This document shows, one piece after another, positions 3,040-39,623 of a stretch of DNA of 64,000 nucleotides. Made by a program: the position numbers and the translations under genes. This stretch comes from Tetradesmus obliquus (lineage: Eukaryota > Chlorophyta > Chlorophyceae > Sphaeropleales > Scenedesmaceae), in assembly GCA_030272155.1 (NCBI GenBank), contig CP126192.1, forward strand, positions 964,501-1,028,500. The letters run 5' to 3'. Numbering within the stretch: the stretch's first letter is position 1; each line of letters starts with the position of its first letter. The notes under the pieces are model-generated. The model worked only from the letters and a program-made list of their open reading frames with translations. It ran no database searches and was not told the origin of the DNA.

Positions 3040-4276
3040 GGCGGCACGGCGGCCGGGGGCGGCGGCGCTGGCTGCCTGGCAGTCTGCCGCCACGGCACAG
3101 CATTGGCCTCTGTGTGCCAGTGTGGTGCGCTGATGTCATGTTGCTTCTGCTGTTGTTGTGCTGCATAGCCTGCTATGCCAATACTACTTAGGCTTGCTTG
3201 GTGCCAGTGCAGCAGTGCTGTTGAGCACTGTGCTGACGGTACTGTATGAACCATGCACCATTGCATGTTGTGCAAGGATGTGTGCTGCAAAAACTGCACA
3301 CTGGTGAAGGATGGTGGCAACCATGCAGTGTGATGGCACAGTCAGCTGCACACAATTTCTGTAATTGTTTGGCAGGTTGAGGAAGGCATGCTATGAGGCT
3401 ACCTTTCTTCGTTTGGTGTGCCGCACAGCTCAGCCTTATTTGTTGCAGTCCTGGCCGTCCAAGCAGGCAGACTCTGCCAAGCTGTCAGTACTAGTGGTGC
3501 ATGTTGGATGAAGTCCGTCCCTTTTGGTTGTTGCACTTACTCGATGCCACAGCGGCTTTTTTTCACCACGTGTTGTGTGTGCGCAACACATAGTTTTATT
3601 ATGTAAAGCAAGGAAGTGCTGCACACCCATTGTACGCACCCATGATAGCATCATGTGCACAAGGTTTGTACATCTCGATGTGGCGATGGCGATGTCAAGC
3701 TGGCTGTTCGTTCGGGCTGAACAAAGAAAATGCGGAATTTACATGTGGCACAGCTTTGCCTAGGCATGTGGAGATGCTTCTGCTGTGTCTGGGCACTTTG
3801 TGCCTCTGGTGTCATATCTGGTGCCAGACATCAACGGCAGGTAAAATGGATATCCAAAGCGGCAGCGTGTAACTTCCTTTCGATAGCTGACGGTTGTGAG
3901 TTGACCTACCAACTGCTTTCAGGCTGCGCGGAGGCCTGCACAGTGACACTAGGTGTGCTAACCCTAGCAGTGGTTAATGACACCGCGATCACCCCAAGTG
4001 ATCTTATGCATGCAGCAAGAATGACTTGCAGGATCGTTTCATGAAGTCATCATCATCCGTTTTGCACCACAGATCTACAAGTCGCTGGCCCCAGCAACGC
4101 AGGGAACAGCGTACGTTTAACGCGTTTCTGCTGGCACGTTTCTAGGCTTACGCTACTCACGCTGCTAGTTGATGTTACTATGAGTTTAAATTTGAACATA
4201 GCTTGAGCGGGTTGTGTCAAATACAGCACCAGCACAGCATCACCACAGTCACCGGTGCACCGGGTGCTCTGGTACC
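3040..4276. other. 3' UTR and intergenic spacer
   Basis: No coding sequence is supported. The first part is probably the 3' UTR of the upstream gene, with a TGTAA signal at 3360-3364. The remainder should hold the promoter and 5' UTR of the AP2 gene; GC content drops toward about 4000-4200. Confidence 0.5.
3360..3364 (+). terminator. TGTAA polyadenylation signal
   Basis: TGTAA lies about 320 nt after the stop codon at 3039. It is the usual poly(A) signal of chlorophycean algae. Its position fits the 3' end of the first gene, but no cleavage site can be read from sequence alone. Confidence 0.45.
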
Positions 4277-18894: not shown

Positions 18895-20805
18895 GGGCCG
18901 GCCAGGCTGCAACTGCGCGCATCTGGGGGCGCCGTGTGACCTGAGGCTGTTTTAACAAGGCGTGGCTGCCAGTTGTGAACGCAAGAGGGTTCACAACATG
19001 CTTCCTTGTTCTTGGCAGTGGCGCCGGCAAGCGTGTTGGGTGCTCAGCACAAGCTGTGGCATGTAGTGTGTTGCTTAGTTTGTGAGCCTGTGTGTCACAT
19101 GTGTGGGGCATGTGATGCTGCAGCAATGAAACATCTGTTGGGCTTTTGGGGAAGGCACTTCAAGTTGTATGTACATGCGCCAGTCAGCTTATCTGTCAGC
19201 CCAACCTACCACCAGATGTGTACAGAGGTAGGGTGGCTATTATGCTGCAGCACATGTGGACAATGGCTCAGGCATACGCTCGCCACAACGTGCTGTGCAT
19301 CCATGCAAATGCTGCAGCTCATGATGGGCTGTGGAGCTGCGCAGCCAAGTGTTGATTAACAATCGCTCGTGGCAGTTTTTTTCCTGGGTCCTCGTATGGC
19401 ATGCACCATAGTACTTGGGTGTTGCTGTTGTTGACCTCGACGCGCTACGCAGCATGCCGACGTGTTGCAATTGTCAACGCAGTTTGCCGCTTTGTCTTGT
19501 ATCATGCTCCTTTTCATGGTGCAGGCCGGCTGTTGACACTGGTTTCTTGAACCCAGCCTCATCATAAGCACACGAGCATTGGTAACCTGATCTTTTGGTT
19601 GCAACAAGGATGGTTCAATGATGAGTACCGCTCCCAACCCAGCTGCAGCCCACCTATCACATTGAATCAAAGGCGTGCGCACCTAGTGGTAGGCGCTAGC
19701 GGGCCTGCTTGTGCTAATCCTCGTCCAAAAACCACCAAGTGGAGCTCAAGGGAACGGTTCCCTGTCTGCGACAGACACATCCACAGCTGCATCTCAACCA
19801 CACAATCACACATTTGCTGTGGAACAGAGCCACGCTGTACAACTGCACATTCTATGCCCAAATGCATCTGTCTAAACCTGCCTGTGCACGCCATGATACT
19901 TCTGCATGTGAGTACGCATTATGTTGCATTGTGTTTGCAATGTGTGACCTGCAACTCTTTATGCTGTGCAGCCTAGCGCCCTTTGCTCAGACCACGCCCA
20001 GCGACCCAGCTCAGCGCTGCCATGCCGCATCACACACCAGCCACTCCCCAATTAAGCAATCGCACAATGAACCTGACAGTCAATCTTCCGTCAGGTCGAC
20101 AATGCTGTCATTAGCAACACCAGGAGCGGCGCGTTGTGCAGCATGCCGCTGCTGCGCCTGCTGCCTCACATGGTTCCACCTCCCCATGAACGCTTCAGCA
20201 TCAACAGGCATTGCACACAAAAAAACAGGCATTGCTGCTGCCGCCGCCGCCGCCGCCGCCGCGGCAGGCGGTTGGAGCTGTGCAGCAACCTGATGCTGCG
20301 CCCCTGCCCCTGCTGCAGCTATTCAGAGTCTGCCTCATCATTGACGATGACGAGCAACATCGTCAGTAGATGGTGACGCATCAGTGGCAGCAGCAGCAGC
20401 GAGTAACACTTGCATGACAGTGGTCTGCTAAAGCATAACTCAGAGCGTATGTAGCGGGGCCTCTGTGCATTGGACATCATTGTGGACATCATACAATGTT
20501 GTCATCGCAGGCTGTACATGCGACTTCTGCTGTATGCTGTGTGTACAAGTTTGTACACGCTTGCACACATCATGCAAAAAACACTTTGTTCAGTGCTTTG
20601 CTGCATGCACACGGGCTGTAACCCATGCAACAGGCAAGCATTGGCCTGGAATGCCAATTAGCACCACAACGCTAAGGCATCAAACAGGGTTGCCCTAGGT
20701 ATGCATAAGTTACTGCCACCAATACACGCAGTACAAGCATTCAGCGTCTCAGCAGCAGCCGTAACATGCTGCAGGGACCCCGCCGGCCCACACAGCGGCC
20801 AAGCC
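18895..20805. other. convergent intergenic region, no gene seen
   Basis: This lies between the stop codons of SERRATE (+) and the giant gene (-), so it holds both 3' UTRs. Open frames are short and featureless. A (GCC)n run occurs at about 20238-20266. No exact TGTAA close to the SERRATE stop codon was noticed. Confidence 0.5.
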
Positions 20806-21572
20806 TCAGTCCACCTCCATGCCATCCTCCTCATCCTCATCAGCGTCGTCAGCGCTGCTGCTGCCCTCCTCATCACTGGCGCTCTCACTTTCCTCCTCCT
20901 CACCATCCTCAACTCCATCGCCAGCCTGCCCACCGCTGTCGTCCACCGACTGCTGCTCCTCGGCCTCCTCGCCCTCCTCATCGGTGAGGAAGCTGTCGGC
21001 CTCATACTCGTCATCAGCCAGGTCGCCCGGCAGCTGCGTGCCGTCAGGCGGCAGGCCGTCCAGAAAGCCCTCCGGCCACTCGTCTGGCCAGTCCAGCCCG
21101 TCATCCCAGTCGTCAACTGCTGCTGCTGCTGCAGCAGCAGCGCTAGGGCCGAGAGGCACTGGCGCAGGACTGCAGGTGGCAGGGCAGCAGCACAGGCAGC
21201 AGCAACAGCAGCAGACAAGTCAGCTGGTGATATATCATGTTTAATTGCACTGCAAGGAGCAGAAGTGTGCACTAGGGTACTGCCACTTGCTGTTTCAGCT
21301 GCTTGGGCCCCAGCTGCGCCAGCCACACGCCAGCCCTCGCTGCAGCTCACCTAGCAGCCGCTGCCGCCTGCTGCGTGCGCTGCTGGCGCTGGCTGCTGTG
21401 CTGCGCCTCCGCCTGCTGCAGGTGCTGGCGCCGTGCGCGCAGCCGCAGGAAGCCCGGCAGCGCAGTGTCAGGGCTGGCGGGGCGCGGCAGCGGGCCGTCG
21501 CCCCAGCTCTCGCTGGCGCTGGCATCGTCCGGCTTGATGAAGCCGGCGCGTCCGCGCTCCCGCCGCTGCCCT

Positions 21573-21633
<61 letters not shown>

Positions 21634-23447
21634 CCGACGCTGCCGCAGCAGGGGCAGCTGCGCCAGCAGCAGCAGCAGCACTGTCGCCATCTTCTTTGCT
21701 GCTGCCGCCTCCTGATGAGCCCTCGTCTTCATCACTGCTGACGTCAGCAGAGCTGCTTTCCTCTGAGCTGCCGTTGCTGCTGCCGCTCTCACTGCTGCTG
21801 TTGCTGTTTGGCTGGCTGTATTCTGACAGCAGCTCACTGCCCTGCTGCTCCCCTTCCTCATCCTCCTCATCTCCCTCCTCATCCTCGCTGCTGCCGGCCT
21901 CCTCAGCGGCCACGTCAAGGAAGCGGCGCGCAGCCTTGGGCAAGGCAGGTGCGCGCCGCCGGCGTGCAACAGCACCAGCAGCAGCCTGCACAGCAAGAGG
22001 CAGCAGGGCAGGCGGGCAGGCAAATAAGGCGTGTCACTCAGCTGCGTACTGGGGCATGCTGACGCCTTTCAAGCAAACCTGCAGCAAGGAGCGTCAGAGC
22101 TGACGCCCATGCAACTAGTTATAGTTGCTTTGTAGCCGTGCCGTCCCTCAGGTGCATCAAGGTTTAGGTGCATGCCGCAGCTCAAGGCCGTGCCTGCAGT
22201 GCAGCGGATGCCAGTACCCACACACCACGCCTGCCCTGCTGCCATTTGCTGTGCAGGCTGTTGAAGCTTACCCCCACTGCGCTGCTCACCTGCTGCACTG
22301 CATCGCTGTCCTGGTCGTCGCTGTCACCAGCCGCCTGCTGCTCCGCCTGACCCTCACTGTCACTGAGCAGCACCTGCTGCCGGCCACGGCGCCTGCCAGC
22401 AGCAGCAGGGGCAGCAGCAGCAGCAGCAGCGGGCCGGTCCTCGCTGCTGTCAGCCAGCTCAGGCTCCTCGCCGTTCTCCTCTGCGCTGCTGCTGCTGCTG
22501 CTTGTGTCTGTGTCAGGCTCATCACTGCTGCTGATGGTGATGCTGCTGCTGGCAGCCTGCTGGGCGGCCTGCGGGGCAGCTCCACCTGCACAGGCAGACA
22601 GCCAGGCCAGGCAGGGCTCAGCAGCGCACACATGCCACGAGGGGAAAGGCATGCCCTCAGCGGCGGTGGGAAGGGTGACTGTTCCCAGGCCCCATCCGAA
22701 AGACTTTGCTTCAATGCTTTGAGGCATGTTTTGCCAGATACGCACACTGCCTGCATCAAGCCGCAGAGCCAGTAGGCTGGTGGAGGCACCACCTGCTGCC
22801 ATTGCCCCGGCTGATCCGATACAGCCGCTGATATTCTAAGCACACAGGCACACATATGCTTGATTTGTCATGTAGTGAGCTGTGTTTCATACGGGTCCTG
22901 CACGCCCACCTGCTGCATTGTTGACTTGTTGACCGGCAGGACGACCCGACCCCACAGCCACCGCTTTGGCAGGCTGGCGAGCACCACCAGTGCCGGCAGC
23001 GGGGTCAGCAGCAGCAGCAGCAGCAGGGTCTGAGTCGCTGCTGCGCTGGTCATCTTCTTCAGATGAAGACGGCTCACTGCTGCTGGTTTCCTCGCTGCTG
23101 CTGGAGCTAGCGGCGCTGCTGCTGGAGCTAGCGGCGCTGCTGCCGTCGCTGTTCTCACTGCTGCTGTCACTGCCGCTGTCACTGCTGGTGTCGCTGCTGG
23201 AATTGTTGCCTGCCAGTGGTGCCATGCCAGCATTGCCAACACGCACGTCCTGCTGTGGCTGGTGTTGCGGCTGCTGGGGTTGTGGCGGCAGAGGAGCTGC
23301 TGCTGCAGGCGCAGGCTCGCCTTCAGACCCAGAGGCGTCCCCGCTGCTGCTGCTGCTGCCGCCGCCCTCATCACTATCGTCATCCTCGCTGGAGCTTGAG
23401 GCATCAGAGCTGCTGGAGCTGGACTCCTTGCTGCTGCTGTCCTCGTC

Positions 23448-23493
<46 letters not shown>

Positions 23494-25684
23494 GTGCTGG
23501 TGCCGTCCTGCTGCATGCCACCTGCTGTTGCAGCCCCGGCTGCTGCTGCCGGTGCCCCTGCTGCTGCTGGCGCAGCTGCTCCAGGTGCTGCTGCTGCTGC
23601 TGTTGCAGCTGGTGCAGGTGCAGGCATTGTGGAGGCTGCAGGGGCAGCCGCAGCTGCAGGTGTGTGCCTCATGCTGACTGCTGGGCTTGCACCTGAGTCC
23701 TCACTGCTGCCGGAGCTGCTGCTTGACTCACTGCTGCTGCTCTCATCTGAGCTGCTGCTGATGCTGTCGCTTGTGGTTGCCCCAGAGTCCTGATCGAGTG
23801 CCGCAGCATGAGCAGCAGCGTGGCCACCTGTGTCAGCAGCACAGCGGCAGCAGCAGCAGCAGCAGACACATAATTTGTTGCAGTTGATGGGTTGACAGGA
23901 TGGTGCACTATTGAAAGCTGTCACATGACAGCTGCCGCCATGCATGCTTCTTGGCAGCTGTTGCTGTGTATTGGGGAGTGCATGCAGCTGCGGCCGCATG
24001 ACAGCACAAGCAGCCCACTTGGCCACCCACCAGCAGCAATTGGTCCGGGCTTGCTGCTGCCCTTGCTGCTGTCCTCGTCAGCATCGCCACCGCTGTCTGC
24101 GGCGCTGCTTGAACCCGAGTCGCTGCTGCTGTCCGAGCTGGTGCTGCTGCTGCTGCTGCTGGTGGTCCCCAAGTCGGAGTCAGAGCTGGTGGCTGCTGCC
24201 GCTTCCGCGTCTGCTACTGGTGGTGGTGCTGGCGGTGCTGCAGCAGCTGCGCCGCCATCAGCCTCGCTGTCAGCAGCGCTGCTGCTGCCTGAGTCACTAC
24301 TGCTCTCTGAGCTGCTGCTGCTGCTACTGCTCGTCTCGTAGTCGGAGCTATTGGCTGCTGCTTCTGCCGCTGCTGCTGCTGGTGCTGGTGGCGGCGGTGG
24401 AGGCGCAGCGGCTGGGCCGTTGGCTGCAGCTTGCCCATCAGAGGCAGCAGCAGCGTCAGCAGAGTCTGACGTGCCTTGGCTCTCACTGTCATCACCTGAA
24501 GTGCTGCTGCTGTCAGCATCGCTGCTGCTGCTGCTGTCGTCACTGCTGCTTCCACTACTGCTGCTGTCGGAGCTGCTGCTGCTTGCATCGCTGCTTGAGC
24601 TGGCTCCAACCGGTTGCGTGTTGCCGTTCCCAGCAGGCCCTGCGCTAGCAGCGCAGCAGTAGCAGCACACAGGCAGGTGATGAAGCTACGCGGTGAGCTT
24701 GCACGGCCCAGGCATAGGCCAAGCGCAGGTTGTGTTGTAGGCCTGCGTGTTTGCAAGTGCAGGTGTGCTGAGGTGACGCACTGCAGGCGGCAAAAGCATG
24801 CAGAACTGCTGTACAGTTGCTGTTGTCTTTACGATAGCTAAATTTTGCACACATTGTGGCCGCAGCAGCATGTGCTGCATGTGATGGCGTACTACCTTGC
24901 GCGTGACATGCACATTGTGCAGTCCAGTTGCGCAGCAACTGCATCTGCAACAATGCATACATGACAAAGCAGACTTTATGAATCATGCATGCACTGATTA
25001 CCTTGCGGCTGTGCTGCTGTGACCGCAGCTGGCGCTGCAGTTGCAGCCGCTGGTGCTGCAGCATCATCAGGTTCACTGCTGCTGCCAGGCTCGGAGTCTG
25101 AGCCCTCATTGCTGCTGCTTGGTTGGCTGCTGCTGCTGTCGTCCTCAGCGCTGCTGCTGCTGGAGGACGGCTGCGAGCTGCTGCTGGCCGCAGCAGCGCC
25201 GTTGCCTGCGCCAGCGCCGGCGCCTGCGGACATACAACAGAGGCACACGGTGCACGCAGGATCAGCTACGGCTGTCAGGCGCTCACAAGGATTTGGGTGA
25301 AGAAGCCTGCCACTGAGCTTGAGTACACGTGACTGCGAATGCTTGCAGCAAGAGGGTGCTGGCAGTATAGCTGGCTAGCAGTCCTCAGTGGCGCCTGCAT
25401 GTCGTCAGCTTCACAGCATGTACAACAACACTGTGCCTGTAGCCATGCATGCGGTCAACACACAAGCCTGACCTCAGCTCACACAGCTGCTGGCCGCCAC
25501 CCACCTGCTTGCAGGGCAGCCACATTCGCAGCTGGCGTGCTGCGTATGCCAGCCATTGCAGCAGCAGGTGCTGACGCCGCTACGGCAGCAGCAGCAGCGG
25601 CAGCAGCTGTGTTGCCTTGTGTGGGAGGTTGTGTTGGGGATGGCGGTGGACTGTCATCATCCTCGTCACTGGCCTCACTGCTGC

Positions 25685-25716
<32 letters not shown>

Positions 25717-28700
25717 TTCTCACTGCTGCTGCTCTCACTGCTGCTGTCTTCACTGCTGCTGTCATCACTGCTGCTGTCATCACTGCTGCTGTCATCACTG
25801 CTGCTGCTGCTGCTGCCACCGGCTCCACTTGTGCCTGCCGCCTCGCTGCCTTTGGCCCCTGCAGCACATGCACCACAGCTTGTCATGTGCCTTTGGCCCC
25901 TGCAGCACATGCACCACAGCTTGTCATGTGCCTTTGACCCCTGCAGCACATGCACCACAGCTTGTCATGTGCCTATGGCCCCTGCAGCACATGCACCACA
26001 GCTTGTCATGTGCCTTTGGCCCCTGCAGCACATGCACCACAGCTTGTCATGTGCCTATGGCCCCTGCAGCACATGCACCACAGCTTGTCATGTGCCTTTG
26101 GCCCCTGCAGCACATGCCCCACAGCTTGTCATGTGCCTTTGGCCCCTGCAGCACATGCGCCACAGCTTGTCATGTGCCTTTGGCCCCTGCAGCACATGCC
26201 CCACAACTTGTCATGTGCCTTTGGCCCCTGCAGCACATGCCCCACAACTTGTCATGTGCCTTTGGCCCCTGCAGCACATGCACCACAGCTTGTCATGTGC
26301 CTTTGGCCCCTGCAGCACATGCACCACAGCTTGTCATGTGCCTTTGGCCCCTGCAGCACATGCACCACAGCTTGTCATGTGCCTTTGGCCCCTGCAGCAC
26401 ATGCACCACAGCTTGTCATGTGCCTTTGGCCCCTGCAGCACATGCACCACAGCTTGTCATGTGCCTATGGCCCCTGCAGCACATGCACCACAGCTTGTCA
26501 TGTGCCTTTGGCCCCTGCAGCACATGCACCACAGCTTGTCATGTGCCTTTGGCCCCTGCAGCACATGCACCACAGCTTGTCATGTGCCTTTGGCCCCTGC
26601 AGCACATGCACCACAGCTTGTCATGTGCCTTTGGCCCCTGCAGCACATGCCCCACAACTTGTCATGTGCCTTTGGCCCCTGCAGCACATGCACCACAGCT
26701 TGTCATGTGCCTTTGGCCCCTGCAGCACATGCACCACAGCTTGTCATGTGCCTTTGGCCCCTGCAGCACATGCCCCACAACTTGTCATGTGCCTTTGGCC
26801 CCTGCAGGACATGCACCACAGCTTGTCATGTGCCTTTGGCCCCTGCAGCACATGCACCACAACTTGTCATGTGCCTTTGGCCCCTGCAGCACATGCACCA
26901 CAGCTTGTCATGTGCCTTTGGCCCCTGCAGCACATGCCCCACAACTTGTCATGTGCCTTTGGCCCCTGCAGCACATGCACCACAGCTTGTCATGTGCCTT
27001 TGGCCCCTGCAGCACATGCACCACAGCTTGTCATGTGCAACACAGTATGTTTGTTTGCATGATGCGCATGCAGGGTTGGCGCATGATGGTGGCAGCCGGG
27101 ACGCTGGCCAGGCGACAAAAGCAGGGTGCACAGCATGCAACAGTTATGGGAGAGAAGCAGCTGTGTTTGGGAGGGCAGCTGCAGCTGGGCAAATGCATGC
27201 AGCCACAGCATGCTTCGTGCAGCTTGCAGGACAAGGGCGGAGGCTGCGCAAGCACAGTGAGGCTGCTCACCTGGCTGGGCGGCAGCTGCAGGTGGCTGCA
27301 GCGCTGGCGCCGCTGCTGCTGCAGCATCACCCCGCAGGTCGTTGCTCCCTTCCTCATCGCTGCTGTCATCTTCGTCATCACTGCTGCTGCCGTCACTGCT
27401 GCTGCTGCTGCTGCTGGAGCTGGAGCTGCTGCCGCTGCTGTCCTCACTGTCATCGCTGCTGCTGGGCTGGCCTCCACTCCCAGCAGGAGCAGCAGGCAGC
27501 ACAGCAGCAGCAGCAGCAGCAGCGGCGGCGGCGGCGGGCGGCTGCTCGCTTTCCGCACCTTCACTGCCGCTGTCACTGTCGTCGCCACTGCTGCTGCTGC
27601 TGTCGCCTTGAGATGACTCTGATGCGTCAAACAGGCCGCCACCGCGCCCTGCAGCAGGAGCGAGCATCAAGTTGGCGGCAGCAGCTGCAGTCAGCGGCAA
27701 CAACAAGCACATGCAAGCAGGCCTGCGCTCAGGTGGCTCAGGCAGCTGACATGCAGGGAAAGCAAAGCTAGGCCCCATGCAGTTGACAGGCAGCCAGCAG
27801 GAACAGCATCAAGCAGCCAGCAGCACATACATGTGGCTGCTGTGGAGCACACTTACTGGCTGGCTGCGCAGCGCCACCTGGCATGCGCCCTGCTGGCGCC
27901 TGGCCCGGCACAGCCTGCTGCTGTGCCTGGCCGCCCTGCACTGCGGCGCCGCCACCGGGCTCCTCCTGCTGCTCTTCATCAGAGTCAGAGTCCTGCTCGG
28001 AGCTGCTGCTGGGGGGCAGCGGCAGCGCGCGGCGGCCTGGCACAGCGGTGCAGCGCAGCGCAGCAGCAGAGCAAGGTCAGCAGGGGCGGAGATGTGCCAG
28101 TGGTGGAATGGCTGAGCGCTGCTGCCCCTCACGGCTTACAGTGCAGTGAACGATTGGCAGCAGGGGAGGCAGCCTGCGAATGTGTGGCTCTGTGAACCAT
28201 GAATGTTACTGCTGGCGGCACGCCCTGGTCACTTGGTGCTGCAGTGCCTCTGTGCTGTGCAGGGCGCGCCTTGCTGCACCTGCCATGCACTGGTTGACCT
28301 GCAGGAGCGCCACAGCAACCTGCCGTGGCCATGCTGCACACGCATGTGTGCTCAGCACGCTGACTGTCAACCACTCACCCGGACGAGCCCGCGCTGGCAC
28401 TGCAGCAGCTGCTGGTGATGATGGTGCTGCTGTTGCTGCGGCTGCGCCATGATCGTTGCTGCCAATGCTGCCTGATGCAGCGGCAGCCTCGGCATCCTCG
28501 TCGTCATCATCATCATCATCTTCCGACGCGTCCTCGCTGCTGTCACTGCTGTCGCTGCTGCTGCTGCTGCTGCTGTCGCTGCTGGAGCCTGATGCAGCTG
28601 CTGCAGCATCAACGCCGCCAACAACCGGCTCGTCCTGCTGCTGCTGCTCTGGCTCATGGTCATCCCCATCCCGGGCTGCTGCTGCTGCCGGCTGCTGCTG

Positions 28701-29405
28701 CTGCCTGGCGGATGACATCTGCTCAACCTGCGCGGGGCTGACTCCTGCAGCAGCCAGCGCCTCGCCACACGCCTGCAGCATGCAGGAGCCGGCAGTACAG
28801 CAATGCAGGAGCAGCAGTGAACAGCAATGAGTAACATACCATGTTGACTGTTGAAGCAGGCAGGTGCGGGCCCGGCAGGTTGTGCATGCGCCGCGGCCCT
28901 CTTTGCAAACAAGCGCAAACAACACAGCATGAGAGCCAGCTGGCGCTTGCTGCCTGCCCTGGACTCCTCAGCGGCCGCGCGCACCTGCTTGGTGGAGGGC
29001 TGCACGCGCAGCCTATGGGTGCTGCAGGCTGCCCGCAGCTCATCCAGCAGCAGGTGCGAGTAGGGCGCGGCAGGCCCGGTCAAGAGCTTGCGCGGCACGC
29101 CCTGGCTGCGAGCAGCAGCTGCAGCAGCAGCATCAGCAGCAGCAGCAGGCGGGCTGCCTCCTGCCTCATCGTCATCATCGATGTCGCTGCTGCTGCTGCT
29201 CTCGTCGTCATCACTGCTGCTGTCCTCGCCATCACTGCTGCTGCCACTGCCCTGCTCCTCCTCACTGTCAGACACCAGCTGCTGCCGACGTGGCCGCCCC
29301 TGCTGCTGCTGCTGCTGCTCATCAGCATCACTGTCCTGCAGATCCTCGTCATGGCCCAGCTGGTCTTGCAGGCCATCCGCAGCATTGTCCACGACCTCGG
29401 GATCA

Positions 29406-29446
<41 letters not shown>

Positions 29447-32395
29447 GGCAGCCTGGGCAGCTGCTCCCTGGCCAGTGCTGCTGCGGCGCCTAGCTGCCAG
29501 CCGCCTCTGCGCGGCAGCTGCTGCGGCTGCTGGGCTGACGCCTGCAGCTACAAGCGCATCGGCACAGTTCTGCAGGCGTGCAGCACAGCAGGCACTCATG
29601 CTTCTTTGTCGGGGTGAAGCATGTTATTGGGGACTCACCATGTTGGAATTATGCGCTTGCTGGTTATGCTGAACGCGTGCGCATGAGCTGGCAGCAGTTG
29701 TTCACAGCAACTTCAAGGCAAGCAGCCACTGCCAGCTTGCGTGCCTGTGCAGCTCAGGCCAGCCTGTGCACAGCCTGGGTACCAGCAGCTGGGGCATCAG
29801 GTCAACCATTATTGCGATCATGGGGGGTGGCCTGTGCACGCACACATGACCAGGCGGTGATGGGCCACCCCAGGCCACCTGCCCCTCAAGGCCAGCCTGT
29901 AACCACCAGCCGCCCAATGCGCCCCCTGCCTCCCACACACCCGCACGCACCTGCTTGGTGTTGGGCTGGGCGCGCAGCTTGAGCTCCACGCAGGCGGCCC
30001 GCAGCTCATCCAGCAGCAGGTGCGAGTAGGCAGCAGCAGGGCCAGTCAGCACCCCACGGCCGCCTGGCTGGGGCTCGCTGCTGGCAGCAGCAGCTGCCCC
30101 GAGGCCTGCAGCTGTTTTTGGCGGTTGCACTTCATCGTCGTCGCTGCTGCTGCCAGCCTCTTCATCGCTGCTGCTGCCACCATCTTCACTGCTGCTGCTG
30201 TCGCCCTCTTCATCCCTGCTGCTGCTGTCGCCCTCTTCATCCCTGCTGCTGCCATCACCACCATCACTATCCTCCTCCTCCCCTACATCTCCTTCTCCTT
30301 CCTGGCCTGGCTGCTGCTGCTGCTGCTGCTGCTGCTCATTAACTGGCCCTTCTTCTCCTGCGTCCTCATCCCCGTCTGACTCATCACCAGCTGCTGCTGC
30401 TGCGGCTGCCCTCAGGCAGCCGCTGCCGCCGCGCCTTGCTGCCAGCCGCCGCTGCCCTGCAGCCTGTGCCTCCTCTGGCAGGATGCCTGCAGCTGCCAGC
30501 GCATCAGCACAGGCCTGAAGCGCAGCAGCACAGCACAACGCAGCAGCGCACAAGGACAGTGAGGAGGGGCAGCTGTGATTGTCAGGTATTAACAGGACAC
30601 CAAGCTGTGCCTCTGATTGGATTGCAGTTGCTGTAGTGCTTTTGTGCTGTGATAACATCACCTAATTGCAGCACAGCAGCTTCATAGAGACAGAAAGCAC
30701 TGCCTACGTAAGGATCCAGCATCTGGCTGCGGAGCATCAAGCCACCAGCGCGCCCTGAAGGTGCGGGCTGCACACGCCACACAATTGAAGCTGGGCTGCA
30801 GTTGTACAAACTCTGCGGCACCCCCTGCCCGGGCCCTGCTGGCCGCACCTGCTTGGTGGAGCGCTCCGGCCGCAGCTTGAGCTCCACGCAGGCTGCCCGC
30901 AGCTCATCCAGCAGCAGGTGAGAGTAGGGCGCGGCAGGCCCGGTCAGCACCGCGCGCTTGGCGCCTGCTGCTGCACGCGGCTGCCCAGTTGGCTGGCCAC
31001 CATCATCTTCATCACTGCTGCTGCTGTCGCCATCGCTGCTGCTGCTGCTGCTGCTAGATGCATCATCATCGCTGTTGCTGTCATCCTCATCACTTGCTGG
31101 CTGTGCACCATCACCATCATCAGCCGCAGCAGCAGCAGCCTGGCTGCCATGCTGCCCCTCATCCTCACGATCGTCACCATCCTGCTGCTGCCCATCCTCA
31201 TCTTCATCGGATCCGCCAGCTGCCGCTGCCGCACGGGCTGCCCTGCCGCGGCGCTGCCCCTGGTGAGCTGCCGGGCGAGTTGCTGCACCTTCCACGGCGC
31301 GAGGGGCCACGCCTGCTGCTGCCAGGGCGTCAGCCCACGCCTGCAGCACAGCACAGCACAGCACAGCACAGCACGGCACAGCACAGCACAGCACAGCACA
31401 GCACAGCACAGCACAGCACAGCAGGGCCAGCAGCACAGTCAGCTGGCTGCGGCATACAAGGGAACCCCACAAGGTGCATCAGGACAGGATCGATTGCACG
31501 CTAAACCAGGCTGCGCAACTGTGCACCACGTGCTGCAAACACTGTACCTTGCATGCCAAGTGGTTCAAAGCCACTAAACAAGACTAACCAGCAATGCGAT
31601 GGAGGCAACTGCAGCAGGAACGTCCTGGCCTGAGCATCATCATAGCCATCCAGCCGGCTATCCTGCCGCATCTGGATCCACCAATGAACATCAGGCTGGA
31701 GGCTGAAGGTACATGCAGGCTGGCTGTACAGCTGATGGTGCCTGCAGGCCCTCAGACAGCAGCACAGTGGCTGTGCCTGCAAGCACATGGTGCCATGCCA
31801 CATGCACGCTGCCGCACAACCCCGCTGCCGTGCCTGCCCTGCACGCACAGCAGCCACCCACCTGCCTGCCCTGCACCCACCTGCCTGCCCTGCACGCACA
31901 GCAGCCACCCACCTGCCTGCCCTGCACCCACCTGCCTGCCCTGCACGCACAGCAGCCACCCACCTGCCTGCCCTGCACCCACCTGCCTGCCCTGCACGCA
32001 CAGCAGCCACCCACCTGCCTGCCCTGCACCCACCTGCCTGCCCTGCACGCACAGCAGCCACCCACCTGCCTGCCCTGCACCCACCTGCCTGCCCTGCACG
32101 CACAGCAGCCACCCACCTGCTTGCCCTGGCCCACGCCGCGCAGGCGCGCCTGCCTGACCGCTGCTGCCAGGTCCTCAGCGCGGCAGCCGCTGTAGGGCTC
32201 GCCAGCACCAGACAGCCGCACGCGCTTGCGGCCTGGCCGGCCCGCGCTGGCCGGCACGGCACGCTTGCGGCCACGCTGCGCCGCGGCAGCTGCAGGCGCT
32301 GCTGCTGCTGCTGCTGCTGCTGGAGTGCCTTGTGCCAATGCCAGCAGCACCTGTGCAGCAGCAGTAGCTGGACTGTCCAGGTCTGACGCAGCAGG

Positions 32396-32429
<34 letters not shown>

Positions 32430-34419
32430 GGTGCTGCCGCATCAGCATCTGGGTCCTCTGCTGCGCTGCTCTCCTCGCCCTCCACAGCACCATCATCGTC
32501 CTCACCCTCTTGCTCATCCTCATCCTGTTCCGAGTCTTCTGACCCGCTGGTTGCTGCTGCTGCTGCTGCTGCATCGCTGTCAGTGTCGTGGCCCTCACCC
32601 TCTGTGCTGCTGCTGCGCTGCTGGCCTGCCTCCCTGCCGCTGCCTCCAGAGTCCTCTGAAGACTCCTCATCTTCACCCTCACTGCTGCTGTCACCACCAC
32701 TGTCACCACCACCACCACCCTGCTGCCCCCGCTGCTGCTGCCGCTGCTCACTGCCAGCTGCAGCCGCCGCCGCTGCTGGCCTGCGGCGCTTGCGCTGGCG
32801 GCTGCCTGCGGCAGCGGCATGGCCCTCGCTGTCCCTGCCGCCCTCCTGCACCTCGTGGCGTCGCTGTTGTGCTGCTGCTGCTGCTGCTGCTGCTGCCTGC
32901 GCACGCGTCCTGCCCGGCGATTGCACAGAACTCACAGCTGCTGCTGCTGCTGCACCTGCTGGCAGGAAAGCGCACGCAGCAGCAGGGAGGCGGCAGGTGT
33001 TGGAGTCTGGCGTGATGACCCGAGCAAGCCGAGCACAGCATGCAGGCGCTGCCATCTGCTTTGCTAGCATTCAACAAGACACCCAGTGCAGACTTAAACC
33101 AACACAGCAGGAACAACAAGACACATGGGGTTTGGTTGGGAAATGCATGCGGCTGCCGCACTGCTGCAGAGAACAGGGCGCTCAGCCAGCATTAGAAGCA
33201 GCAGACCAGCTAAGAGCTTCCTGCCATTTGCTGCGTTAGAGGCTGCATGCAATCAGTTGCCTGCTTGAAAACTCGCGTTGAACAGCAGCACGCCTGGATT
33301 GTAGTATGCTGCATGCAGCACCGGCTATAACCCAGCTGCTGTGGCAGCTGCTGCAGCTGCTGTTGCTGCCCAACACAAGCCACAGGCGGTCAGGCCCGGC
33401 TGCATCCCGCCACGCACCAGTCACACCGCCAGCGCTGTCACCAGGGGCCGCATGCCGCTCCCTCAGCGCCACATACAACTTAGCCGGCATAGGGGGGCCC
33501 ATGGCTGGCAGCAGCAGCAGCAACAGCAGCAGCAGCAACAAGAACAGGCACCTGTGTGTCAGCCATATGCAACTGCAGCCCAGAAACTGTTCATTAAAAA
33601 AACAAGGGCGCCTGTAACGCTGGCCACACAGCAGGTACCATAGACGTACAGTTGCATCCTAGCATGAGCAGGTGATGCATGCACGCCTCATCCTAGCATG
33701 AGCAGGTGATGCATGCACGCCTCATCCTAGCATGAGCAGGTGATGCATGCACGCCTCATCCCAGCATGAGCAGGTGATGCATGCACGCCTCATCCCAGCA
33801 TGAGCAGGTGATGCATGCACGCCTCAGGCGGGTGCCAACGGGCTGCAGCTGCCTGCGCATGCAGCCGCGCTCACCACGGTATCTGTCGGGCATGTGGGCA
33901 GTAGCGGCGGCGGCCGTGTTTTGTGCCCTGCGCAGGACATCCGTCGCCTGCATCATGGTCGACAGGGGGCCGCCATCCACCTGGCTGCTCAGCGGCAACT
34001 GCAACAAGCCATGACAAGCTGCAGGCTGCTGCTCAGGCTGCTGCTGCTCAGGCTGCTGCTGCTCAGGCTGCTGCTGCTCAGGCTGCTGCAGCTGCAAGTC
34101 GCTGTGCAGGCCAGAAGCACCAGCAGCTGCAGCAATGCCAGCAGGACTATTGCTGGCCCGTGTTCTTTCAGCAACAGCAGCAGCAGCAGCAGCAGCGCCA
34201 AGGCCCGGGGGCGGACTTGTCCGCGGGAAGTGCGGCTTAAATGGCCAAAATGCAGCGGCGGTTGCAGCAGCGGCATCTGCAGCCCGGCCTGCTGGCTGTA
34301 CTGCCACGCGCAGGCGGGCACGGGTGGGCGGTGCGGGTGCTGGTGCTGCGCCTGCCTCGACTGCTGGTGTGACTGGTGCTGCTGCAGGTGATGGCTGCTT
34401 GCGCTGCTGTGGGCCCTGC

Positions 34420-34451
<32 letters not shown>

Positions 34452-35486
34452 GCAGCAGCAGCATGAACAGAAGCAGGCAGGCACAGCGTCTGAGCGGCTG
34501 CAGCGCAGACCAAGGGGCGAGCGGGGCACACCAGCACCCCCTTGTGCTCAACAGCCAAGGGCCCAGGCTCTGCCTGGGCTGCAGCAAAGGCACTGAATGA
34601 CAAACAAGGTTGAACCAGAAAGGTTGCATTGGTGAAGTCATGCGGCATCACCACGGCTGACACCTGCCATAATGGAAAACAGCAAGGACATCTGCACAAC
34701 ATAGGAGCGATCCAGGTGGCATCTGCTGCAGCTGCGCAGCAACCAACCTTGCCGTGCAGCTGCTGCTGGCGCTGCTTGGCTGTGCTGTTGCCAGCCTGCC
34801 CTGCAGCAGCCAGGTTGGGCTGATCTTGGGACACCTCAGCAGCGGCGGCTGCTGCTGCTGCCGCTGGCTGGTCCCAGCTGTCAGGGCTGCGCCTGAAGCA
34901 CAGCGGCACCTCGCCGTCATCATCGCCAGGCTCGTCACCAGCGGCAGCAGCGTCGTCGTCTTCGGTTTCATCAGCATCACTGCTGACACCACCGACACCG
35001 GCATCATGGATGCCTTCGGCTGCTGCTGCCTCTAACTCTGCTGCTGCTGCTGCCGCATCTTGATCTGCATCCTGCCTAGGCTGAGGGTCCAGAACAGCTG
35101 CGTCCTGCAGAGCAACAGACAGCAAGTGCATGGTTTCAGCGACAACATCTGCTTGCGCAAGCACCCAAATGCACATGCAGGTGGTATGCACCGGCACGCA
35201 CAGCATCCCTTTACCTCACACCTCATCACTGTGTGGGCGCAGCTGCTGTGCACAGCCCGCCACAGACATCCAGCATGTAACTGCGCACTTTGTTGCCAAA
35301 TAGTGTTGGCTGAACATACTCTACAGCAGCTCTTGATCCGGCGCCCATAGCAGGCACTGCACGGTAGCCATGTGCACCTGCTGCGCACATCCACTTTTGC
35401 GCCTGCAGCGCCTGGCCACACAGCAGCAGCCCTGAGGCGCTCTCACCTGTATTGCAGTGGGCTGCAGCAGCGCGCGTGCTGCTTGC

Positions 35487-35551
<65 letters not shown>

Positions 35552-35767
35552 CTGGCCAGCTTGACCGCCTGCCTCGTTTAAGGGCGACTCCGCTTCTTGG
35601 CTTTCAAAAGCCTGCGCCAGCTGCTGCTGCTGCTTCTCATCGTCATCATCCTCGCCGTACTGCTCGTCAGCGCCGCCATCGTGCCATGCCTGCCGTGGCA
35701 GCCGGCCGCATGCACCTGCTGGGCCCATGTCAGGGGCAGCGCCACCGTGCATGGCCTGAGCACCAGC

Positions 35768-35801
<34 letters not shown>

Positions 35802-36770
35802 AACTGACGCTGCACCGCATGCACGGCTTCCTGGAGGCACGTCCCCGGGCCACGCAGGTACCTGCGCTCAAGCTGCTCCATAAAACCTGGGTCACCAAGT
35901 TGAAGTGGGCGTGCAGGAGAAGTGGTTGCCTGCTGGTGCTGCTGCTGCTGCTGTAGTGAAGGCAGTCGCTGCTGCTGGAGCTGCTGCACAGAAGCCTGCT
36001 GCTGCTGCTGCTGCTGCTGCTGCGGCGGCGGCGGCGGCGGCGGCTGTTGCCGCTGCCACATAGCTGGGCCGAGCTGTCCCTGCTGCAAAGTAAGCTGCTG
36101 CTGCATGCCACCATTTGCAGCAACTCCAGCAGCCCCGACTGAAGCAGCGGCTGCTGCTGTCGCTGCTGCTGCTGCATCGTCAGCGGTCCTGGGTCGCTTG
36201 CTGTCATGCACTGCAGCGGTGTCGTCAGCATCTGCTGTTTGGTGGCGCTTCAGTGCAGTTGCATGTGGCGGCGTGGGCAGCCTGCAGCAGGACACACACG
36301 GCGGGTGAGGTGGGCACTTACGTGGCTGCACACAGGAGGCAGTTGGGCGAACTGCACTGTACATGCACAGCGCATGCTGGACGAGCTGGTGCCTGCTGCC
36401 ATCCTGACTGAGCACGGCAGCCCAGCCTCAGCTCAGGGCTCACCTGTGGCTGCTGCTGCCAGGCATCTGCTTGGGGCCTGCCTGCTGCTGCTGGGGCTGC
36501 TCTGCAGCACGGTGGCCTGCTGCTGCAGCGGCGTCAGCGTCAGCATCCAGCGTGGGAGGCATGTCTGCTGCTGACGGCGCAGCCTGCAGCGTGGCAGGCG
36601 GCTCACCCTCCTCCATGTCTGCTGCTGACGGCGCAGCCTGCAGCGTGGCAGGCGGCTCACCCTCCTCCATGTCTGCTGCAGCAACAGCAATAGCAGGCAG
36701 CAGCTGTTGCTGCTGCTCGTCCTCCATGCCGCTGCTGGGGTCCTCAATGGGGTCCTCCTCCTCCTCTGGC

Positions 36771-36826
<56 letters not shown>

Positions 36827-37285
36827 CCGGGCAGCATGGCCAGGCTGTCTGCAGTGGTGCGTGAGATGGTCAAGAGGTGTGGGCTCCTCAATTTCCTCCT
36901 CATCAGCATCACCCACACCCGAGGTCTGCTGCTGCTGCTGCTGCCGTTGCATGCCTAGGACGCCTTGCAGCAGCCTCTGCTGCGGCCGTGGTGGCAACCC
37001 TGCTTGCTGCTGGGGCAGTGCTGCTGCTGCCATGGCCCCACCAGCAGCGTGCTGTGCAGCTGGTGCTGCTGGCGCCTGCCAGCCGGCCGCCTGCTGCGGC
37101 TGCGAATCCAGGAAGGACGCGGTGGGCTGCCCACAGATGATGTCCTGCGTCAACATGGCTGCATCGGGGCCTGCATAAAAGTTCAGCGGCGCTGCCGCTG
37201 CTGCTGCTGCCGCTGCTGCTGCTGCTGGTGGTTGCTGCTGGGCTCCAGGCTGCAGGCTGTCACCCGGTGCTCCTGAGTGTGGCAT
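20806..37285 (-). CDS. giant acidic Ser/Ala/Gln-rich protein with four SAP-like repeats
   Basis: Not assigned to a family. Nineteen exons (minus strand): 37285-36444, 36281-35447, 35104-34748, 34415-33875, 33504-33322, 32958-32117, 31340-30849, 30514-29951, 29569-28985, 28772-28379, 28036-27857, 27648-27271, 25858-25505, 25223-25002, 24639-24031, 23827-22910, 22585-22290, 21985-21351, 21169-20806. They join in frame to 3,196 residues. The N-terminal third is poly-Q/Ala with a basic KRHQTADADD/KRPRT stretch (possible NLS). Four repeats of the form YSHLLLDELRAACVELKL...STKQ|ACADALAAAG follow, each split by a phase-0 intron; the helix-loop-helix spacing resembles SAP domains and, less closely, the SLX4 C-terminal domain. 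The C-terminal half is Ser/Asp/Glu clusters between Ala-rich linkers, ending acidic (DGMEVD). A nuclear or nucleolar chromatin scaffold is a guess. Exons 1-5 are less certain than 6-19. Confidence 0.55.
25851..27039. repeat. 41-bp minisatellite, 29 copies, in an intron of the giant gene
   Basis: The unit beginning TTTGGCCCCTGCAGCACATG recurs every 41 bases, 29 times with no indel; I checked the spacing at about seven points across the array, including the last unit. Only a few positions vary (TTT/TAT, CACC/CCCC, AGCT/AACT). It fills most of the 1.4-kb intron between exons 12 and 13. On the minus strand each unit contains CTGCAG|GGGCCAAAGG, the acceptor used by exon 13. Because 41 is not a multiple of 3 and the unit has no plus-strand stop codon, all three plus frames stay open, which creates a spurious 810-codon frame. 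Confidence 0.95.
31343..31424. repeat. (GCACA)n pentanucleotide tract at an exon acceptor
   Basis: About sixteen GCACA units (TGTGC on the minus strand) lie immediately upstream of the CTGCAG acceptor of exon 7 of the giant gene. They form its polypyrimidine-poor, TGCTG-rich tract. Confidence 0.9.
31841..32118. repeat. 51-bp minisatellite, 5-6 copies, abutting an exon donor
   Basis: Units starting GCACGCACAGCAGCCACCCA occur at 31841, 31892, 31943, 31994, 32045 and 32096. On the minus strand each has two GGCAG|GTGGGT motifs, matching the real donor of exon 6 of the giant gene (GCAAGCAG|GTGGGT at 32117). It lies in the intron between exons 6 and 7. Confidence 0.93.
33656..33826. repeat. 34-bp tandem repeat, 5 copies, in an intron of the giant gene
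   Basis: AGCATGAGCAGGTGATGCAT starts at 33661, 33695, 33729, 33763 and 33797, an exact 34-base period with a single T/C variant. It lies in the intron between proposed exons 4 and 5. Confidence 0.93.
36561..36668 (-). repeat. 54-bp in-frame duplication in exon 1 of the giant gene
   Basis: Two adjacent 54-base copies (period 54, hence in frame) code ADMEEGEPPATLQAAPS twice. This is a direct 18-residue duplication within the first exon. Confidence 0.9.
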
Positions 37286-38178: not shown

Positions 38179-38900
38179 ATCAATCAATCAATTACACGTT
38201 TTGCTAGCAAGAGGGGGCCCAGAAAGGCAGCCACTCCCAAACCACCTCAGGTGGTTCCTGACCAGAGGGGCCAAACCCCCAAGCCAGGGCCAGATACGGC
38301 CAGAACCTTCAAACACAGAAGAATAAGCAGGTCTCTCAATCGCTGATGGCCCTGAGCTGGACCACCGCGTCAGTGCATTCCTGTGTTGGGTGAATCCTTC
38401 CACAAGGGCTCTGCCAGCCCACACCAGCAATCATGAATGGCTCATTTGAGGCCGGGTACATCTGCTGTAGGCGCTGCTGTCGCAAAAGTGACTGCTGCTG
38501 CCTGTAAGAGTGGGAGGATGAGCGGGAACTCCTCATAGGAGCCCCTACAGCACCAGGGTGGGTAACCCTGTATACCATAGACCGCCATGCACCCCTCATG
38601 AGACAGTAACCACGAAGGTCATCCATCTGATGGGGGAGTTCTAGTTGCTGCAAATCGTTGTGTTCACAATCTGTCCACCAAACTGGAGGCCGGCCCCTAG
38701 GCCGCTTTGTCACTCCATGTAATGAAGAAAACAAAGCGACATGGGGGATCCTGCTCTCATCCATGCGCACAACATGCCCCAACCACCTTAGGCGGGCCGC
38801 CGTCAGGTGATCTGCAAGGCTGACAGTGCCGCACTGCTTTCTGATCTCCACCAGCCGGCTGCAGCATACATGTACATGATTCAGCTGTATGCCATGCGTG
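38179..38900 (-). mobile_element. 5'-truncated LINE (non-LTR) retrotransposon tail
   Basis: The minus strand encodes a block typical of the extreme C-terminus of LINE-type reverse transcriptase ORFs: AARLRWLGHVVRMDESRIPH followed by KRPRGRPPVWWTDCEHNDL. The coding part ends by about 38336. Downstream on the same strand are a TGTAA at 38196-38192 and a terminal (ATTG)n tract at about 38194-38179, a usual arrangement for algal LINE 3' ends. The reverse transcriptase and endonuclease domains are absent, so this is a dead 5' truncation. The upstream limit is approximate. Confidence 0.75.
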
Positions 38901-39623
38901 CACTTGAAGTCGAGTGCCATCGATGGCACCGCGCGGCAGCGCATGCAACAAGGTGCAGCATACATCAGAGACCACAAACACAGATGGCAGTAAAACAATC
39001 ATGAGCAACACGACGGGGGGGTGTGCGGGCCGCACCAAACCCCACCTCTCCACAAGGCGCAGCGCCCCTGCAGCCACACACCACTGCTGAATAATGCACC
39101 GCTGAATAATGCAGATGCAGTGCAGACTGTCCTGCCATCATGGTGCTACCAGCTGCGCTGCGTTTCTGACAAGCTATCCCCTAGAAAATTGTTGAGGGCT
39201 GCAGTGCACTCAGCAAACGCAGACATAGGACTGCCGTGGGCCCCACCTGCTGCCGATGCCCGTGGCACTCTGTGCCACCAGTGCAGTGCGCTAAGCAGCC
39301 GGATCCGCAGACACCACCAGGCGCCAGCAAGCCACACACGTCCCAGTGTAGTGACTGCTGTCAATGGCCCAGCGCCTGTGCGCCCCACAAAAATGCCAGG
39401 TGCTGCAGTACCCTTGGCAAAATACAACCAACAGCTGCCAACATACAGTAATGCTACCTGCTGAAACTTTGTACAGAATGCATGCACACATGCCTGCATG
39501 CTCATCGGCGTGCAGGCAGGAATCAACCGGCACAACCTGCCAGTCAGCGTACATGGCTGCTGCTACTGCTGCTGCTGAGGCACACGTGGCCAGTGCGGGC
39601 AGCAGCGCAGCGCGCGCAGCTGC
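38901..39623. other. spacer downstream of TIC236
   Basis: No gene is supported. It should include the TIC236 3' UTR. An exact minus-strand TGTAA was not noticed here. Confidence 0.45.

What the first reader, a model, noticed from the sequence alone, without database searches (positions are those of the whole stretch)
20806..37285. Giant unassigned gene with four SAP-like repeats and modular exons
The hand-built model joins 19 exons in phase to a predicted 3,196-residue acidic protein. Four copies of YSHLLLDELRAACVELKL...TKQ|ACADALAAAG sit across the junctions of exons 6/7, 7/8, 8/9 and 9/10, and each is cut at the same place by a phase-0 intron. That implies tandem duplication of exon plus intron. 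The fold resembles a SAP or SLX4 C-terminal helix pair, but I cannot name a family. A multi-SAP-like, phosphosite-dense scaffold of this size would be new to me in green algae.
Basis: partly seen in the sequence, partly recalled or inferred. Interest (0 to 1): 0.8.

Follow-up and report, generated by a model that had tools for sequence, protein, structure and literature searches.

The report
Giant acidic algal gene, SAP-like repeats
A green alga carries what looks like a very large, mostly unstructured acidic protein gene in which one small two-helix module was copied four times by duplicating an exon, and in which two splice sites have themselves been multiplied into repeat arrays; what the protein does is not known.

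Summary
An independent splice-aware reading of the minus strand gives 19 exons and 3,175 residues between 37285 and 20806 (reader: 19 and 3,196). All four helix-pair repeats are there, each split after ...KQ by a phase-0 intron. A fifth, probably decayed copy on contig C1 has splice signals at the same point. The species is inferred to be Tetradesmus obliquus. Pfam and NCBIfam do not recognise the module, and no solved structure matches convincingly. A profile comparison with eight SAP domains of the same genome beats 150 column-shuffled controls, but weakly; SLX4 does not stand out from its controls. I call the module SAP-like, not SAP and not SLX4. Modules are net positive (+3 to +6) in a strongly acidic, serine-rich chain (whole -342), somewhat like treacle/Nopp140. 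No relative was found in the protein lengths searched. They resemble amphioxus 'mirages' and make transcript evidence essential: the C-terminal third may rarely be translated. Function is inference only.

The parts
20806..37285 (-). gene model, 19 exons, 3,175 aa (5' end and unity of transcript unproven)
   Evidence: DP splice model; frame statistics
36444..37285 (-). exon 1 (start ATG at 37285; open frame continues upstream)
35447..36281 (-). exon 2, Gln-rich
34748..35104 (-). exon 3
33875..34415 (-). exon 4 (junction uncertain)
33418..33504 (-). exon 5 (87 nt, least certain)
32117..32955 (-). exon 6, ends with N-half of repeat 1
30849..31340 (-). exon 7 = C-half of repeat 1 + acidic linker + N-half of repeat 2
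29951..30514 (-). exon 8 = C-half of repeat 2 + acidic linker + N-half of repeat 3
28985..29569 (-). exon 9 = C-half of repeat 3 + acidic linker + N-half of repeat 4
28379..28772 (-). exon 10, begins with C-half of repeat 4
27857..28036 (-). exon 11
27271..27684 (-). exon 12, Ser/acidic
25505..25858 (-). exon 13, Ser/acidic; its first 12 bases belong to the 41-bp array
25002..25223 (-). exon 14, Ser/acidic
24031..24639 (-). exon 15, Ser/acidic
22910..23827 (-). exon 16, Ser/acidic
22290..22585 (-). exon 17
21351..21985 (-). exon 18
20806..21169 (-). exon 19, acidic tail (38% D/E), stop
32117..32236 (-). repeat 1, N-half (YSGCRAEDLAAAVRQARLRGVGQGKQ)
31257..31340 (-). repeat 1, C-half (AWADALAAAGV)
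30849..30968 (-). repeat 2, N-half (YSHLLLDELRAACVELKLRPERSTKQ)
30431..30514 (-). repeat 2, C-half (ACADALAAAGI)
29951..30070 (-). repeat 3, N-half
29486..29569 (-). repeat 3, C-half
28985..29104 (-). repeat 4, N-half
28689..28772 (-). repeat 4, C-half
31831..32128 (-). 51-bp x 5.8 array at the exon 6/intron 6 boundary: six CAG|GTGGGTGG donor copies, in frame (17 aa per unit)
25847..27038 (-). 41-bp x 29 array at the intron 12/exon 13 boundary: 29 copies of CTGCAG|GGG acceptor; only the last keeps the frame

Best explanation
A real, fast-evolving protein gene of Tetradesmus obliquus for a giant, mostly disordered nuclear phospho-scaffold. Read from the sequence: one exon carrying [C-half of helix module - acidic Ser linker - N-half of helix module] was duplicated in tandem at a phase-0 junction, so that splicing would rebuild four whole modules joined by acidic linkers. 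Inferred: each module is a divergent SAP-like helix-loop-helix whose basic face contacts DNA/chromatin (or an acidic partner), and four modules give avidity. The long Ser/Asp/Glu stretches, phosphorylated by CK2-type kinases, recruit basic partners, much as treacle and Nopp140 work. The splice boundaries of exons 6 and 13 have been multiplied by minisatellites, so the amount of full-length protein and the loop length of repeat 1 could depend on which splice-site copy is used.
For: Gene model reproduced. Repeats at the same junction; r2-r4 dN/dS 0.39-0.68, which suggests some purifying selection on the module (no significance test). Fifth copy on C1 with splice signals at the same point. Predicted helices at SHLLLDELRAACVE, CADALAA and the stretch after it (low confidence). 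SAP profile score 20.0 vs shuffled maximum 15.1, 0 of 150. Modules +6, +4, +5, +3; the three linkers between them -21, -32, -25; whole -342. Basic NLS-like clusters, e.g. KRPR, RKRRR, GRPGRKRVR just before repeat 1. 161 S/T-x-x-D/E sites. Treacle has CK2-phosphorylated repeats (11 motifs in exons 6A-16) and binds rDNA and Pol I (PMC7957619, passages).
Against: Pfam SAP does not hit any of the four spliced repeats at E<=10, while a genuine SAP of the same genome scores 3.7e-8. Without the C1 copy the SAP comparison is much weaker: 14.5 vs shuffled maximum 13.8; probability 2.5% and E 0.019 with alignment A1. Repeat 1 and the C1 copy are not detectably alike (158 of 2,000 shuffles reach the score). 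Lysine is only 0.9%, so the Lys-rich spacers of treacle/Nopp140 are missing. No relative, and no deposited T. obliquus protein with the module, in lengths 244-775 and 972-3913. dN/dS of repeat 1 against the others 0.82-0.89. No transcript, localisation or binding data. Only 1 of 29 acceptor copies gives the full-length frame.
Confidence: 0.42

Rival explanations
1. Not one 3,175-residue protein: the region makes two genes, or one protein that ends early (in intron 10, or a few codons after exon 12 because an upstream copy of the acceptor array is used), and the Ser-rich 3' part is untranslated, separate or decaying.
For: Read on past exon 10, the frame runs to a stop at 28206, and the only minus-strand TGTAA (algal poly(A) signal, recalled) inside the gene lies just after it at 28140. 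No TGTAA follows the predicted stop: none on the minus strand in 18000-20806. Only 1 of 29 acceptor copies gives full length; the upstream copies printed stop at codon 2049.
Against: Good exon-10 donor GTGAGT; phase is kept through exons 11-19; the Ser/acidic style continues across the break. For the TIC236 gene, whose stop is at 39624, the next minus-strand TGTAA is also 1.4 kb away, so the signal is a poor guide here. In amphioxus, data suggest that repeated boundaries do not disturb regular splicing (PMC3087553, passages).
Confidence: 0.27
2. The module is a protein-protein helical pair of another kind, for example an SLX4 C-terminal-like nuclease-docking domain, so the protein would be a green-lineage SLX4-type scaffold.
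For: By eye the Y..L.L.EL pattern and final L...G(I/V) fit. A protein similar to SLX4 is unknown in plants (PMC9071465, abstract and passages), so a hidden one would be valuable.
Against: Pfam Slx4 misses all four repeats but finds a recalled human-like control at 2.6e-17. hhalign 13.6 against a shuffled maximum of 16.3 (2 of 150 reach it; 6 of 150 without the C1 copy). The module is internal and repeated. The template was one recalled sequence, so this test is weak. The whole-genome Slx4 search is uninformative: its controls were silent too.
Confidence: 0.08
3. No protein constraint: CAG/CTG-rich simple-sequence DNA that happens to read open on one strand.
For: Homopolymer runs are common in every frame (472-652 residues) and the region is full of arrays.
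Against: Asp+Glu 507 against at most 94 in other frames (partly by construction); four modules of unique sequence with dS above dN in r2-r4; coherent splice sites for 19 exons.
Confidence: 0.06

Closest known systems
SAP domain (PF02037)
   Same: Helix, extended loop, helix; EL...L...; Lys then hydrophobic at +3 and Leu at +7 (by eye, SAP pattern as); aligned over 38 columns by hhalign
   Different: One residue longer loop (by eye); the Gly before Lys is kept only in repeat 1; not recognised by Pfam; four copies split by introns
SLX4 C-terminal domain (PF09494)
   Same: Small helical domain in a large scaffold (recalled); superficial Y..L.L.EL pattern
   Different: No profile match; internal and repeated; no other SLX4 domain in the stretches scanned with Pfam
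Treacle (TCOF1) / Nopp140 (NOLC1)
   Same: Low-complexity acidic serine clusters with CK2-type sites and NLS-like clusters; treacle's 11 motifs lie in exons 6A-16, about one exon each (PMC7957619, passages)
   Different: No Lys-rich spacers; treacle and Nopp140 have no SAP-like modules (recalled); no sequence homology shown
Amphioxus 'mirages' (Adh3, globin genes)
   Same: Minisatellites that tandemly repeat an exon-intron boundary with its splice signal, at 5' or 3' boundaries (PMC3087553, passages)
   Different: Here two in one algal gene; 29 acceptor copies, and six donor copies spaced by whole codons; boundaries here are modelled, not seen in cDNA

Membership tests
SAP domain (PF02037) | Profile match above Pfam cut-off | tested here: not met
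   Four spliced repeats, no SAP hit at E<=10; control SAP of same genome 3.7e-8
SAP domain (PF02037) | Helix - extended loop - helix fold | tested here: inconclusive
   Helices at the expected places in an exon model of mean pLDDT 54.9, pTM 0.20, which does not contain a whole spliced module
SAP domain (PF02037) | Remote profile similarity | tested here: inconclusive
   hhalign prob 26%, score 20.0, 0 of 150 shuffles reach it; without the C1 copy 14.5 vs max 13.8 and prob 2.5%
SAP domain (PF02037) | DNA or RNA binding | not testable with these tools
   needs purified protein
SLX4 (PF09494) | C-terminal domain profile match | tested here: not met
   No Slx4 hit to four repeats; recalled control 2.6e-17
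SLX4 (PF09494) | Domain at the C-terminus of the protein (recalled) | tested here: not met
   Modules at residues 1128-1742 of 3,175 in the model
SLX4 (PF09494) | Binds SLX1 | not testable with these tools
   needs protein
Treacle/Nopp140-type scaffold | Repeated acidic Ser clusters with CK2-type consensus sites | tested here: met
   composition and 161 S/T-x-x-D/E sites; phosphorylation itself untested
Treacle/Nopp140-type scaffold | About one exon per repeat | tested here: inconclusive
   clear for exons 7-9; not defined for the Ser-rich exons 11-18
Treacle/Nopp140-type scaffold | Alternating Lys-rich basic spacers | tested here: not met
   Lys 0.9%
Amphioxus-type mirage | Tandem array spanning an exon-intron boundary, units carrying the splice signal | tested here: met
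   Both arrays enter the modelled exon by 12 bp; 29 acceptors, 6 donors; the boundaries themselves are predicted
Amphioxus-type mirage | Length instability between haplotypes | not tested
   no second strain's locus was available

The most novel reading that the evidence does not exclude
A splice-site 'rheostat' in a green alga: the number of acceptor copies in intron 12 and donor copies in intron 6, which can change by replication slippage or unequal exchange, sets how much full-length scaffold is made and how long the loop of its first DNA-contact module is (0 to 5 extra 17-residue Cys/Arg/Gly-rich units). The scaffold is a lineage-specific multi-SAP-like phosphoprotein.
Probability: 0.1. 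Interest if true: 0.65.

Novelty: new variant of a known kind. Interest (0 to 1): 0.42.

Why it matters
If right, it is a lineage-restricted nuclear scaffold built by exon duplication around a module that profile libraries do not recognise, with two boundary-straddling minisatellites in one algal gene. Intron 12 would be a natural test of splice-site choice: 29 near-identical acceptors in a row with only the last one productive. Copy number could be read across T. obliquus strains, two of which have 17-piece assemblies listed in PMC12571836 (passages).

Tried and rejected
SLX4 membership: rejected on profile tests; the whole-genome Slx4 family search was silent in its controls too, so it does not count. 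LEM domain: 12.1 vs shuffled maximum 11.8 with the C1 copy, 11.2 vs 14.5 without (3 of 150 reach it), on two recalled sequences; not pursued. PDB by profile: ten distinct sequences up to E 10, best 0.0077 to an acid phosphatase on a short KQA..ADA stretch; judged chance. A recalled SLX4 domain found no PDB chain at all, so no solved SLX4 domain could be used. Pfam on eight less repetitive segments and on ten of 19 exons: only hits below their curated cut-offs (PF10937, PF15391; PF09849 on an Ala-rich part). Pfam did not see exons 11, 14 and 17, the linkers of exons 6-9, or all of exons 5 and 19. NCBIfam: nothing for the five copies. Viral relatives: 132 pattern matches, none confirmed. Fold search not run because the model is too poor (pTM 0.20). 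Intron homology among introns 6-9: only short or simple-repeat matches. Promoter/terminator scan: bacterial consensus, uninformative. A paper search for a chromosome-level genome gave nothing relevant.

Papers: PMC12571836, PMC9071465, PMC3087553 and PMC7957619 were seen as passages by term search; all others only in search listings. One search listed 10 of 20 papers and one search listed 7 of 7; by title and abstract start none was an algal case of boundary-straddling minisatellites. Subscription papers are mostly not covered.
Full report
Where it is. The window is G000:C2:964501-1028500 of a 104,662,953-base, 17-contig assembly. A 75-residue stretch of the neighbouring TamB/TIC236 reading frame matches a Tetradesmus obliquus protein (OEZ85_010059) at 100%. 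By eye the C-terminal part of that protein and the window frame differ in a few residues and in the length of homopolymer runs. A comparative paper lists a T. obliquus assembly of 104.7 Mb in 17 pieces, GCA_030272155.1 (PMC12571836, passages). I infer that the window is that species, probably that assembly.

The gene model. A splice-aware dynamic programme on the minus strand, with residue weights set by hand, gives 19 exons and 3,175 residues. The product is 23% Ala, 15% Ser, 16% Asp+Glu, 0.9% Lys, pI 4.05. In the model frame there are 507 acidic codons and no stop in 3,165 codons; the other five frames have 29-94 acidic codons and 21-220 stops. The model was told to avoid stops and like acidic residues, so this is not an independent proof, but the gap is large. 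Weak points: the frame is open upstream of the start, exon 5 is short, no TGTAA (the usual algal poly(A) signal, recalled) follows the stop within 2.8 kb, and one lies in intron 10.

The four repeats. Each is [T/S-G-(P/A)-x-x-x-Y-S...(D/E)-L-x-A-A...L-R...K-Q] | [x-(C/W)-(A/G)-(D/E)-A-L-x-A-A-G-(V/I)-x-P], cut at the bar by a phase-0 intron. Exons 7, 8 and 9 each begin with a C-half and end with an N-half, and align over their length at 54-61% identity to exon 8, low-complexity linkers included. That is what tandem duplication of one exon produces. Introns 6-9 no longer align apart from short or simple-repeat matches, so 'exon plus intron' is inferred. Pairwise dN/dS of repeats 2-4 is 0.39-0.68; against repeat 1 it is 0.82-0.89 (46 codons, no significance test).

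A fifth copy. In the genome search with spliced repeat 2, a C-half on contig C1 came up at 25.6 bits, E 0.002; the next hit had 19.7 bits. I found the N-half by reading the frames upstream. In the reverse search the window exon came up at 22.3 bits, E 0.023, the next at 19.4. Against repeat 2 the joined copy scores 106, with 0 of 2,000 shuffles reaching it; C-halves alone 0 of 2,000, N-halves alone 1 of 2,000. Against repeat 1 it is not detectable (158 of 2,000 reach the score). Its dN/dS is 0.94-1.08 against repeats 1-3 and 0.52 against repeat 4, and its frame closes soon after. Splice signals sit at the same phase-0 point. It looks like a decayed DNA-level copy, though a live small gene is not excluded. 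Eight further hits (E 0.15-4.7) were treated as noise; I looked at the reading frames of one. These searches are not sensitive: an N-half query found only repeats 2-4 and missed both repeat 1 and the C1 copy. More diverged copies could therefore exist.

What the module is. Pfam finds no SAP or Slx4 in any of the four spliced repeats at E up to 10, while a SAP of the same genome and a recalled SLX4 control are found at 3.7e-8 and 2.6e-17. A profile of the five copies against eight SAP domains read from this genome (eight of the 13 places over cut-off) scores 20.0; 150 column-shuffled SAP profiles reach at most 15.1. Without the C1 copy the score is 14.5 against 13.8, and with alignment A1 the probability is only 2.5%. 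SLX4 gives 13.6 against 16.3 and LEM 12.1 against 11.8. Column shuffling destroys helix periodicity, so this null is generous to all three. AlphaFold on exon 8 with exons 7 and 9 gives helices at the expected places at low confidence. The fair label is SAP-like, unproven.

Relatives. Three protein searches covered lengths 972-3092 (231 candidates), 244-775 (6,944 candidates) and 1230-3913 (1,964 candidates); the first two gave nothing at E up to 10, the third seven proteins, all with the TamB domain of the calibration stretch. That calibration shows that T. obliquus and Scenedesmus sp. PABB004 proteins are in the database. Yet not even a T. obliquus protein with the module appeared. Either the gene is annotated at a length outside these ranges, or otherwise, or not at all. 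That cuts both ways: it fits an orphan, and it is mild evidence against the exact model. The searches need shared exact 5-residue words, and the third scored a chimeric stretch, so weak relatives can be missed. A viral scan found none.

How it may work. The modules are net positive (+6, +4, +5, +3) and the three linkers between them net negative (-21, -32, -25); the rest after repeat 4 is -211. NLS-like basic clusters occur, one directly before repeat 1. There are 161 S/T-x-x-D/E sites. Treacle, a nucleolar protein with CK2-phosphorylated repeats (11 motifs over exons 6A-16), recruits Pol I and binds rDNA (PMC7957619, passages). By analogy I propose a nuclear scaffold tethered by several weak DNA or chromatin contacts, with phosphorylated acidic stretches holding basic partners. 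The anatomy is read from sequence; nuclear location, DNA contact and phosphorylation are inferred.

Multiplied splice sites. The 41-bp array at 25847-27038 repeats the exon-13 acceptor 29 times; the 51-bp array at 31831-32128 repeats the exon-6 donor six times. Each array enters the modelled exon by 12 bases. With up to two mismatches, 34-base pieces of the units were found only at this locus in the genome (28 and 6 places). Of the 29 acceptors only the last gives full length; the upstream ones printed stop at codon 2049, five codons past the junction. Each donor keeps the frame and adds 0, 17, 34, 51, 68 or 85 residues inside repeat 1. Such arrays are known as 'mirages' in amphioxus, where the data suggest that regular splicing is undisturbed (PMC3087553, passages). 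Two other intronic arrays of the window, 33655-33826 in this gene and 16297-16402 in the neighbouring plus-strand gene region, do not straddle a modelled or visible boundary, so this is not a rule for all arrays here. Arrays elsewhere in the genome were not examined.

Verdict. The finding is real as sequence, with the giant single protein likely but unproven. It is a new variant of known kinds (SAP-like module, acidic Ser scaffold, mirage array), not a member of SLX4 and not a proven SAP protein. Interest 0.42.

Noticed in passing
25847-27038: 41-bp minisatellite, 29 copies, each carrying the exon-13 acceptor; the + strand reads as long open frames (up to 812 aa) that I take as an artefact of the array.
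   Followed up: yes
31831-32128: 51-bp minisatellite carrying six in-frame copies of the exon-6 donor.
   Followed up: yes
L025:4530-5143 (G000:C1:10536530-10537143): Probably decayed fifth copy of the module with splice signals at the same phase-0 point.
   Followed up: partly
33655-33826: 34-bp x 5 array about 50 bp from the modelled exon-4 donor; does not straddle it.
   Followed up: partly
31344-31423: (CAGCA)16 array ending 3 bp before the exon-7 acceptor.
   Followed up: no
36560-36679: 54-bp x 2.2 in-frame coding repeat (MEEGEPPATLQAAPSAAD) in exon 1, copies identical.
   Followed up: no
38336-38998: Minus-strand frame resembling the C-terminal end of a LINE-type reverse transcriptase protein (recalled pattern LRWLGHVVRM...RPRGRP); Pfam gave no hit.
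   Followed up: partly
17689-18216: Plus-strand exon with ARS2/SERRATE-type sequence (PF04959, E 2.9e-5, below curated cut-off), convergent neighbour.
   Followed up: partly
39624-40907: Minus-strand end of the TIC236/TamB gene (PF04357).
   Followed up: yes
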